64,000 nt of DNA from Boudabousia marimammalium (GTDB lineage Bacteria; Actinomycetota; Actinomycetes; Actinomycetales; Actinomycetaceae): the NCBI RefSeq assembly GCF_001936115.1, contig NZ_MPDM01000005.1, positions 124,001 through 188,000 on the forward strand, in the 5' to 3' direction. A model generated the notes under the pieces. It made no database searches, was not told the DNA's origin, and worked only from the letters and a program-made list of their open reading frames with translations. Positions 25,369 to 27,193 of the stretch are shown here, piece after piece. The translations under genes were made by a program, and so were the position numbers. Within the stretch, counting starts at the first letter, position 1. Each line of letters begins with the position of its first letter.

Positions 25369-25441
25369 TACAATGGTGGCGTGGAGCTAGCCGCACCGGC
25401 TTAGCTCCGCGCTTTGACTTAACGAGGAGGTGAAAGAGTCC

Positions 25442-25855
25442 GTGGCTGAAACAACCTATGTGATCTCGGTGGCAGCTGAGCTGGCCGGAATGCATCCACA
25501 GACTCTGCGCCAATACGATCGACTGGGACTGGTCACCCCGCGGCGCACTCGCGGTCGAGGGCGCCGCTACACGCAACGCGACATTACAATTTTGCGTCGC
25601 GTGCAGTACATGTCCCAAGAAGAAGGCATTAATCTGGAGGGAATCCGCCGGATTCTGGAGCTCGAAGCCCGCGTGGAGCGGGCGGAGCAGATGCTTCGTC
25701 AGGTTGCGGAAGCTGAAGCTGCCAGAGCGCGTTCCCGCCACCGCGTCTTCGCTGCGGACGCCTCCGGGCACATCTACGAGACTGCTACTGGCAGGCCGGT
25801 ACGGATGAACTACCGGCTGCTACCTGCCGCGCCTTCACCAACTGATGTGGTTTAA
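25442..25855 (+). CDS. hspR: Heat shock repressor HspR (MerR family)
   Basis: A 137-residue MerR-type repressor. The N-terminal helix-turn-helix is complete (YVISVAAELAGMHPQTLRQY, then DRLGLVTPRRTRGRGRRYT), followed by a dimerisation coiled coil (LELEARVERAEQMLRQVAEA). It represses its own operon through HAIR elements, three of which precede dnaK. The GTG at 25442 is chosen; AGGAGG at 25425-25430 lies 11 nt upstream, a slightly long spacing. A GTG at 25430 would overlap that Shine-Dalgarno. Confidence 0.93.
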   Translation: MAETTYVISVAAELAGMHPQTLRQYDRLGLVTPRRTRGRGRRYTQRDITILRRVQYMSQEEGINLEGIRRILELEARVERAEQMLRQVAEAEAARARSRHRVFAADASGHIYETATGRPVRMNYRLLPAAPSPTDVV

Positions 25856-25905
25856 GGAGCAGGATAGGGACTAAATGCTTCTGGGGAAAGCAAATCAACT
25901 AAACC

Positions 25906-25913
25906 TAATTGTG
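25906..25913 (+). repeat. 8-bp target-site duplication, left copy
   Basis: TAATTGTG directly abuts the left inverted end at 25914; an identical copy directly abuts the right inverted end at 26499-26506. Confidence 0.75.
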
Positions 25914-26010
25914 GGGCTATAGGACATTGGGTGTTGTTGTGCTTGGTTTCCCTTGCTGTGGTGCGGGGTGCCCGCACCCTTAACGCACTACAGTCCCACC
26001 CAGCCACCCG

Positions 26011-26086
26011 CACCGTTTACGTATGAGTTTTTTGCTGAAACAGCCCGTTTTACCCCTGTTTGGGTAAAAAACTCATACATAAATAC
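26011..26086. repeat. Palindromic repeat unit A inside the element
   Basis: A 76-bp unit containing a perfect 13-bp inverted repeat, GTATGAGTTTTTT at 26021-26033 and its complement at 26066-26078. The central stretch includes GCTGAAA and GTTTTACCCCTGTTT, both shared with unit B. Confidence 0.75.
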
Positions 26087-26103
26087 TGAAAAACCACCCA
26101 CAT

Positions 26104-26179
26104 CACCGTTTATGTATGACTTATTTGCTGAAATGGTCGGTTTTACCCCTGTTTTTGTGAATAACTCATACGTAACTGC
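26104..26179. repeat. Palindromic repeat unit B inside the element
   Basis: The second copy starts 93 bp after unit A and is of the same length. Its inverted repeat (26114-26125 and 26160-26171) has one mismatch. Divergence from unit A is scattered and keeps the stem, suggesting the fold matters or did. Confidence 0.75.
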
Positions 26180-26195
26180 GGTGGCGCATTCGGAC

Positions 26196-26256
26196 TGTGT
26201 GGGATTTTGCGTTTTGTACTAGAAATTATCTAGTACAAAATACGTTTTCCCACACA
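26196..26256. repeat. Long imperfect hairpin inside the element
   Basis: The inner stem is a perfect 12-bp repeat, TTTTGTACTAGA at 26212-26223 and its complement at 26229-26240, around the 5-nt loop AATTA. An outer 9-bp stem (TGTGTGGGA at 26196-26204 and its complement at 26248-26256) is in register, giving a 61-nt structure. Confidence 0.7.
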
Positions 26257-26498
26257 CTCCATGAACAGTAGGCAGAGCAGCCAGTGGACAGAGTAGCCAG
26301 CGGGCTGGAAAAGATCACAGCGAGAACGCCCTTACACCACTCCTCACAGCACTGGCACGACCCTCGGACACGCCACAGCAGTAGCACAAAACCTTCAAAC
26401 ACCAACCCCCAGTTTTCCGACTCATCACAGTCCCTTCACACCAGAACTGCCCAACCACAAGGACGCATTCCACACCACCACAGTTTGTCCTATAGCCC

Positions 26499-26506
26499 TA
26501 ATTGTG
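26499..26506 (+). repeat. 8-bp target-site duplication, right copy
   Basis: TAATTGTG, identical to 25906-25913 and directly adjoining the right terminal inverted repeat. Confidence 0.75.
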
Positions 26507-26530
26507 ACAGGTAAACTCATGGTTTTGGGC

Positions 26531-26559
26531 TTGCAATTAGGGTATTGTTGTTGTATAAG
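26531..26559 (+). promoter_or_regulatory. Predicted promoter of the secreted-protein operon
   Basis: TTGCAA (26531-26536), a 17-nt spacer and TATAAG (26554-26559) give a good sigma-70-type promoter 55 bp before the ATG at 26615. CAATTAGGG at 26534-26542 overlaps the -35 box and is an inverted match to CCCTAATTG at 26496-26504, which spans the right end of the element, so the insertion may have altered control. Confidence 0.55.
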
Positions 26560-26614
26560 CATTTTTCTATCGATTTGAGAAGTGCTTTTACCTGATAGTT
26601 TCAAAGGAGAAACC

Positions 26615-27193
26615 ATGAACCAGAAGGTTATTATTGCAAGTGCGGTTGTACTTTTAGCTGTGCCCGCATTGGTCGCATTACCAATGGTTGCTGGTAATGC
26701 TGTTGCTACACCCAAGGCACAGCCTGTAGAAATGGGTCAAGAACGATTGTGGCATGGCGAGGCTTCACCGGAAGTCGATCGACTGATTGAGAGACTGGGT
26801 GGGGAAGTTGCACAATACCCCGATTTGTTTGGGGGTGTGGCATTGTCCTATGACCGACAGATGGTGAAGCTATTTGTGGTCGATCCAAGTAGCATTTCTA
26901 GAATTTCTGCAATTGACGCTATTGTGAGAGACAATCCTGCTTTAATCAAAGTTGTTGACGTCAACTATTCCATTACCGAATTGGAATCGCACAGAGATAA
27001 GGCGATAGAGGTATTGCACGGTAAAGACTTGGTCGCGGCCTCAATCGATTCAATGAACAACACTGTTTCATTGGCTGTAGAAAAGAATTCGGAAGCGGAA
27101 GCCATGCTGGCCTTGCCCGGTAATAGTTCAGTCTTGGACCCTTCCTTGTTCAAAGTTGAGCTGGCAAATCAGGCCGAACTCAGCGCGAACTAG
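26615..27193 (+). CDS. Secreted protein of unknown function
   Basis: A 192-residue protein not assigned to a family. It has a clear signal peptide (lysine at 4, hydrophobic VIIASAVVLLAVPALVALPM, likely cut after GNAVA near residue 31). The mature part contains two similar beta-strand patterns, GGVALSYDRQMVKLFVVD and LVAASIDSMNNTVSLAVEKN. This pattern faintly resembles pro-domains of alpha-lytic-type proteases, but no protease domain follows. There are no cysteines in the mature part. The ATG at 26615 has AAAGGAGAAACC before it and a good promoter upstream. The lipoprotein gene follows 20 bp later, so they are probably co-transcribed and work together at the cell surface. Confidence 0.75.
   Translation: MNQKVIIASAVVLLAVPALVALPMVAGNAVATPKAQPVEMGQERLWHGEASPEVDRLIERLGGEVAQYPDLFGGVALSYDRQMVKLFVVDPSSISRISAIDAIVRDNPALIKVVDVNYSITELESHRDKAIEVLHGKDLVAASIDSMNNTVSLAVEKNSEAEAMLALPGNSSVLDPSLFKVELANQAELSAN

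What the first reader, a model, noticed from the sequence alone, without database searches (positions are those of the whole stretch)
25906..26506. Intact 585-bp MITE-like element with an 8-bp target duplication
Perfect 13-bp inverted ends (25914-25926, 26486-26498), further matching end sequence, and TAATTGTG duplicated exactly at both borders are a full insertion footprint. No transposase is readable. The unmutated duplication implies a recent jump. It lies between hspR and a secreted-protein promoter.
Basis: seen in the sequence. Interest (0 to 1): 0.6.

Follow-up and report, generated by a model that had tools for sequence, protein, structure and literature searches.

The report
Transposase-less jumping element with chimeric interior
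A short stretch of DNA between two genes is the footprint of a mobile element that carries no enzyme of its own and was probably moved by the enzyme of a related full-length element of the kind still present in a sister species; it is an ordinary kind of genome parasite with an unusual patchwork interior.

Summary
Window 25914-26498 (585 bp) has perfect 13-bp inverted ends, GGGCTATAGGACA, and an exact 8-bp repeat, TAATTGTG, on both sides; of five perfect 13-bp inverted pairs in the window only this one has the flanking repeat. The same ends bound full-length insertion sequences in other Actinomycetaceae. In 41 loci scanned, 19 end pairs enclose an IS1249-type (IS256-superfamily) transposase and have an exact 8-bp duplication. 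A congener (G003) has four identical 1457-bp copies with exactly these ends. The host genome has no such transposase, so the element is a non-autonomous IS1249-type derivative, most likely moved in trans. It is single-copy, with no second full copy found in 213 family genomes: 'MITE-like' fits, 'MITE family' does not. The interior is a patchwork: two copies of a host palindrome, a third hairpin, and the 5' end of an IS3-family element 26 bp inside the right terminus. 'Recent jump' is not shown: a perfect 8-bp repeat is weak evidence, and no empty site exists among the three congeners held. Ordinary in kind, modest interest.

The parts
25906..25913 (.). left copy of the 8-bp target-site duplication TAATTGTG
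25914..25926 (+). left 13-bp terminal inverted repeat GGGCTATAGGACA
   Evidence: the same end bounds IS1249-type insertion sequences
25914..25965 (+). left end and subterminal stretch, 84% identical (46 of 55 aligned columns) to the left end of a full 1325-bp IS1249-type element in genome G026 (another genus of the family)
26011..26082 (+). palindrome 1 (72 nt; arms 26016-26043 / 26056-26083)
   Evidence: D1, I2; 77% identical over 71 bp to a solitary palindrome at G000:C1:148119
26104..26175 (+). palindrome 2, 83% identical to palindrome 1; 78% identical over 77 bp to the solitary copy on C1
26192..26260 (.). third hairpin (32-nt arms, 5-nt loop, core TTTTGTACTAGA/TCTAGTACAAAA)
   Evidence: I1; folded
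26387..26473 (-). remnant of the 5' end of an IS3-family insertion sequence (its terminus and the first codons of its transposase), beginning about 26 bp inside the right end
   Evidence: 80% over 86 bp to a stretch in G029; homologous to the left end of an IS3-family element in G251, whose transposase scores 258.7 bits against NF033516; ten loci with this stretch were re-fetched, and the outside flanks printed differ between loci from about this terminus on
26486..26498 (-). right 13-bp terminal inverted repeat
26499..26506 (.). right copy of the 8-bp target-site duplication TAATTGTG
25430..25855 (+). hspR, the upstream neighbour; its stop lies 50 bp before the left target repeat, gene intact
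26615..27193 (+). downstream neighbour: 192-aa protein with a signal-like N-terminus (by eye), no family match; gene intact

Best explanation
It is a single-copy, non-autonomous transposable element of the IS1249 type (IS256 superfamily). A transposase encoded elsewhere, in the same cell at the time, recognised its two GGGCTATAGGACA ends and inserted it into TAATTGTG between hspR and the next gene, producing the 8-bp duplication. Most of the interior was not recognisably inherited from the transposase gene. It is a patchwork of host palindromes and the 5' end of an IS3-family element that came to lie between two IS1249-type ends. The genome has since lost the transposase, or never kept it, so the element is now stranded. 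Shown: the footprint, the shared ends and 8-bp duplications of intact relatives, the absence of the transposase from the assembly, and relatives of three interior blocks. Inferred: mobilisation in trans, the IS256-like copy-out/paste-in route, and the order in which the patches were assembled.
For: Exact ends and duplication. Identical 13-bp ends occur in 22 of 213 family genomes (55 places), while the backward-read control was zero in each row of the table. In 41 loci scanned, 19 end pairs enclose an IS1249-type transposase and have an exact 8-bp duplication (recounted; in one of the 19 the transposase is split). The loci were picked because they hold an exact end, so the sharing of ends is by selection; the transposase and the duplications are not. 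One further copy, L024, was read directly and has CACTACTG on both sides. The L024 transposase scores 446.1 bits against NF033544 IS1249 (cut-off 300). Congener G003 has four 1457-bp copies differing at 0 positions in all 6 comparisons, with exactly these 13-bp ends. The element's first 52 bp are 84% identical to the left end of the G026 insertion sequence. The own genome has no relative of the transposase (G003 is the positive control in 52). A second transposase-less element with such an end (974 bp, exact CGTCAACA duplication) lies in G044.
Against: Single copy, so transposition of this very element was never seen twice. No transposase in the genome now, so trans-mobilisation is inferred. 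The genome is a draft of 16 contigs, and repeats often fall in assembly gaps. Beyond the 13 bp, the ends resemble the element of G026 (another genus) more than that of congener G003, so the partner element is not identified. Weak tblastx matches (E 0.04-0.7) to coding parts of G003e, G026b, G068 and G071 elements leave a trace of transposase gene possible.
Confidence: 0.87

Rival explanations
1. A decayed autonomous insertion sequence: a full IS1249-type element inserted here under its own transposase and later lost its coding region by internal deletion and gain of other sequence in place.
For: The target duplication and ends would look the same; a decayed full-length copy exists in the congener (G003:C1:1887336, transposase split, one end with 2 mismatches). 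A few weak tblastx matches (E 0.04-0.7) touch the 3' coding parts of related elements.
Against: No convincing trace of the transposase gene in the interior: matches of E below 1e-4 to eight related elements lie only in the terminal stretches. Ends and duplication are perfect while the rest is replaced.
Confidence: 0.1
2. A chance or non-transposon repeat (for example a palindromic regulatory or terminator region with coincidental flanking repeats).
For: The interior is rich in hairpins: DNA fold z-score -6.58, 0 of 100 shuffles folding as well; one related palindrome sits downstream of an HPr-like gene.
Against: The end sequence is the terminus of many real insertion sequences with 8-bp duplications; the chance of ends plus duplication in this window is about 4e-5 by my arithmetic, and no other pair in the window has it.
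Confidence: 0.01
3. A mobile regulatory cassette: the three tandem hairpins were selected because they insulate the downstream promoter from hspR transcription. (This adds to the best explanation rather than excluding it.)
For: It lies intergenically, spares both genes, and carries three stable hairpins; a promoter-like TTGCAA-17-TATAAG at 26531-26559 (read by eye) is left intact.
Against: The pattern scan found no terminator-like and no promoter-like site in 25800-26700, and there are no expression data.
Confidence: 0.1

Closest known systems
IS1249-type insertion sequences (NCBIfam NF033544; IS256 superfamily)
   Same: 13-bp ends of the GGG[CT]TA... kind, 8-bp target duplications, same host family
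   Different: Those are 1248-1511 bp among the exact-duplication pairs (one nested outer copy aside) and 1293-1335 bp in the 6 of 16 loci where ends with an exact duplication were found; they encode a transposase. This one is 585 bp and encodes none. IS1249 itself, on plasmid pB85766, appears to end GGGTTAAGGGTCAAAA rather than GGGCTATAGGACA.
Bacterial MITEs
   Same: short, inverted ends, target duplication, no transposase, ends shared with autonomous elements
   Different: single copy here; MITEs are defined in part by being repeated (recalled)
The 974-bp transposase-less element in G044 (L115:1468-2441)
   Same: GGGCTATAGGACA at one end, exact 8-bp duplication CGTCAACA, no transposase found by tblastn
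   Different: no DNA similarity to the window element beyond 30 bp at an end, and the other end has 3 mismatches; apparently an independent derivative

Membership tests
MITE (miniature inverted-repeat transposable element) | short length without transposase gene | tested here: met
   585 bp; no transposase reading frame
MITE (miniature inverted-repeat transposable element) | terminal inverted repeats with target-site duplication | tested here: met
MITE (miniature inverted-repeat transposable element) | ends shared with an autonomous element | tested here: met
MITE (miniature inverted-repeat transposable element) | several copies per genome | tested here: not met
   one full copy in the own draft genome; no full copy among the other 212 of 213 family genomes (at most two candidate places scored in each genome shown)
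IS1249-type / IS256-superfamily element | 8-bp target duplication and IS1249-type ends | tested here: met
   19 transposase-bearing pairs with exact 8-bp duplications have the ends with at most 2 mismatches at either end (loci selected for an exact end nearby)
IS1249-type / IS256-superfamily element | encodes an IS1249-type transposase | tested here: not met
   none in the element or genome: a non-autonomous derivative, not an insertion sequence
IS1249-type / IS256-superfamily element | copy-out/paste-in through a DNA circle | not testable with these tools
   described for IS256 and ISCth4 in passages of PMC7780238; not tested for this element

The most novel reading that the evidence does not exclude
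IS1249-type ends act as a capture device in Actinomycetaceae. Pairs of ends repeatedly enclose unrelated DNA (here host palindromes plus an IS3-family 5' end; in G044 a different 974-bp segment) and are moved in trans, so that hosts without any transposase keep transmissible cargo, including hairpin cassettes that could reset expression of neighbouring genes. An IS3-family element may take part by joining such ends at a fixed place: in the window its left terminus, and in both copies of G251 its right terminus, lies 26 bp inside an IS1249-type end.
Probability: 0.12. Interest if true: 0.5.

Novelty: new member of a known kind. Interest (0 to 1): 0.27.

Why it matters
It names the transposase family that can probably move this orphan element and shows that IS1249-type elements leave non-autonomous derivatives, including a chimeric one, in Actinomycetaceae. 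For genome annotation it explains a hairpin-rich intergenic segment that could otherwise be taken for a regulatory RNA. It does not change the understanding of transposition.

Tried and rejected
Rejected: an RNA gene. The only Rfam match at E up to 1 was a mir-239 hit far below its gathering score (22.1 against 49 bits), a chance hit to the 26192-26260 hairpin. Plasmid or phage origin has no support: no match in plasmids or phages, and an exact pattern built on the left end found nothing in viral contigs. Further copies in the own genome: with two mismatches allowed, the end pattern gives 15 places against 23 for the backward-read control, and only the two known ends are exact.

Led nowhere: an empty-site comparison. 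The three congeners keep dnaJ (in G003 only its first 99 residues aligned) and hspR, but the downstream gene is not found in the fetched stretches, and a search with the 192-aa protein found no match in them. Looking for partners of the remaining ends (duplication with at most one mismatch, end with at most six) gave none in 20 loci. Not examined or 56 out of the 55 places: four places on short contigs of G049 and one of G203; L104 (G049, cut by the contig end) was only. An attempt to learn the genus name through kinship to named loci failed, because the tool tells no kinship for such genomes. The family name Actinomycetaceae rests on one contig-length match (G189:C66, 540,502 bases, = NZ_DS999575.1, Actinomyces urogenitalis); the species of the window stays unknown.

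Literature: the listing for IS1249 (29 papers, 20 listed), MITE plus IS1249 (0 papers), 'miniature inverted-repeat' with Actinomyces (1 paper listed), 'IS256 family' with MITE and non-autonomous (4 papers listed), IS256 with copy-out and others (listing), and passages of PMC7780238. No paper was read whole; except for PMC7780238, only listings and starts of abstracts were seen.

Full report
Observation. The segment 25914-26498 is 585 bp long, begins with GGGCTATAGGACA, ends with its exact reverse complement, and is flanked on both sides by TAATTGTG. In the whole 64-kb window five perfect 13-bp inverted pairs lie 50-3000 bp apart; four have unrelated 8-bp flanks (1-3 of 8 positions equal; one of these four is made by the palindromes inside the element) and this one matches 8 of 8. 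About 3 pairs are expected by chance, and 4e-5 with the duplication too (my arithmetic). The element is 49.7% G+C against 56.7% for the window.

Parent family. The 13-bp end was searched without mismatches in 213 family genomes: 22 have it, at 55 places, and the backward-read control is zero in each row of the table. The G026 copy was read directly: 1325 bp, the same 13 bp at both ends, CACTACTG duplicated, one 383-aa reading frame. That protein scores 446.1 bits against NF033544, IS1249 family transposase (cut-off 300), and below cut-off against the IS256 models NF048019 and NF033543. I fetched 40 stretches, 37 around end matches and 3 at hspR loci, and scanned them together with the window copy, 41 in all. 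End pairs with an exact 8-bp duplication numbered 21 (recounted). Nineteen have a transposase between them: five in congener G003 (one with a split transposase), nine in G034 (one of them nested inside another), two in G068, and one each in G195, G026 and G199. Two have none: the window element (585 bp) and a 974-bp element in G044. The loci were chosen for an exact end, so the likeness of ends is by selection. Against the pattern: two pairs with a transposase lack a matching duplication (L109, L118), and the other fetched end-loci show a solitary end or a pair without matching flanks; a looser search for partners in 20 loci found none. A 13-bp match alone therefore does not prove an element. 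Among named relatives, ends with an exact 8-bp duplication were found in 6 of 16 loci, for example GGGTTAAAGGACAAAA in Actinomyces sp. HPA0247; in the other ten none was found with that test.

Own genome and congeners. G003 holds four identical 1457-bp copies (0 differences in all six comparisons) and a fifth, decayed one. The IS1249 model finds nothing in G000, G001 and G002 at E up to 1, and seven stretches in G003, one of them very weak, so the empty result in the window's own genome is backed by a positive control run in the same call. The element itself is single: other matches in G000 are one external 77-bp palindrome and self-matches of the element. In the family-wide search 10 of 213 genomes match, the own one included; each matched place in the nine others covers one block only: the left 30-52 bp, the right 30 bp, or the block at 474-560 (which scored at most two candidate places in each genome shown). 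An earlier search of 149 relatives, with up to four candidates scored per genome shown, matched 4 genomes, the own one included, with the same blocks.

Interior. Element positions 1-52 are 84% identical to the left end of the G026 insertion sequence. Beyond the first 13 bp the congener's copies are less alike, so the donor of the ends was probably not the G003 element. Positions 98-169 and 191-262 are two palindromes 83% alike. A solitary relative (77-78% identical) lies at G000:C1:148119, just after the stop of a reading frame that looks like HPr of the sugar phosphotransferase system (my reading, not tested by a family search); the strict palindrome pattern is absent from the three congeners. 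A third hairpin follows at 26192-26260. Positions 474-560 are homologous, on the minus strand, to a stretch found in 7 other family genomes. In G251 two copies of that stretch begin a nearly identical segment (99.87% over 1497 bp) encoding a 467-aa IS3-family transposase (NF033516, 258.7 bits against 160). Its termini are inverted repeats TGGACTGAACCC, about 1469 bp apart. The homology with the window begins at that terminus and runs into the first codons. So a piece of an IS3-family 5' end sits 26 bp inside the right IS1249-type end. No IS3 right end was recognised in the window element; the one weak match there (E = 0.97) is explained by the next point. In both G251 copies the sequence next to the IS3 right terminus is itself an IS1249-type end (3 mismatches in 24, 0 of 2000 shuffles as good), again at a spacing of 26 bp. 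Of eight other fetched stretches with the IS3 5' end (L160-L167), none has such an end beside it at two mismatches or fewer. Whether the IS3 element targets these ends, or the likeness is coincidence of few cases, is open. The strand folds far better than shuffles (z = -6.58), which the palindromes explain.

Mechanism. IS256-superfamily elements are described as moving by copy-out/paste-in through a double-stranded circle, and ISCth4 and IS256 favour A/T-rich 8-bp targets (passages of PMC7780238). TAATTGTG, with 6 A/T of 8, fits. The transposase is expected to need only terminal and subterminal binding sites, so a 585-bp element with intact ends could be moved in trans. This is inference; no movement was observed. 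The decayed-in-place alternative is less likely, because the interior shows no convincing transposase remnant; a few weak matches (E 0.04-0.7) keep it alive.

Age. A perfect 8-bp duplication allows about 17% divergence per site at the 5% level, and about 7% if the identity of the 13-bp ends is counted too (my arithmetic). The lack of a transposase in the genome rather suggests that the element has not been moving lately.

Effect on neighbours. Neither gene is broken: hspR stops at 25855 and the next gene starts at 26615. A promoter-like pair TTGCAA-17-TATAAG at 26531-26559 (by eye) is downstream of the insertion; the pattern scan reports none, nor any terminator. A transcriptional effect is possible but untested.

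Verdict. A new member of a known kind: a single-copy, MITE-like, non-autonomous derivative of IS1249-type insertion sequences with a chimeric interior.

Noticed in passing
G000:C1:148119-148195 (L002:1501-1577): A solitary palindrome of about 70 bp, related to the two inside the element, sits just after an HPr-like gene; possibly a species-specific small palindromic repeat or a bidirectional terminator.
   Followed up: partly
L158:1661-3156 and L159:1578-3073 (G251): Both copies of an IS3-family element have an IS1249-type end (3 mismatches in 24) directly beside the right terminus, at the same 26-bp spacing as the IS3 left terminus in the window element; perhaps a targeting preference or a composite unit.
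   Followed up: partly
L115:1468-2441 (G044): A 974-bp transposase-less element with one GGGCTATAGGACA end, exact CGTCAACA duplication and internal repeats (by eye): apparently a second, independent non-autonomous derivative.
   Followed up: partly
L096:1323-3976 (G034): One IS1249-type copy is inserted in the left end of another copy, each with its own exact 8-bp duplication (CCAAAATG outside, TTTTTGGG inside).
   Followed up: no
L094:2317-2348 (G195): Two GGGCTATAGGACA ends in tandem, 19 bp apart, without a transposase match in the fetched stretch.
   Followed up: no
L139:1552-2952 (G251): The IS3-family transposase is a single 467-aa frame whose first residues also match the start of an IS630 model weakly (21.1 against 100 bits).
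   Followed up: no
window 26615-27190 and G000:C2:218192-218674: The secreted-looking 192-aa protein has a 37% identical paralogue in the same genome; in 59 genomes searched, three others match it (G013 39%, G023 25%, G110 30-32%). No Pfam or NCBIfam match.
   Followed up: no
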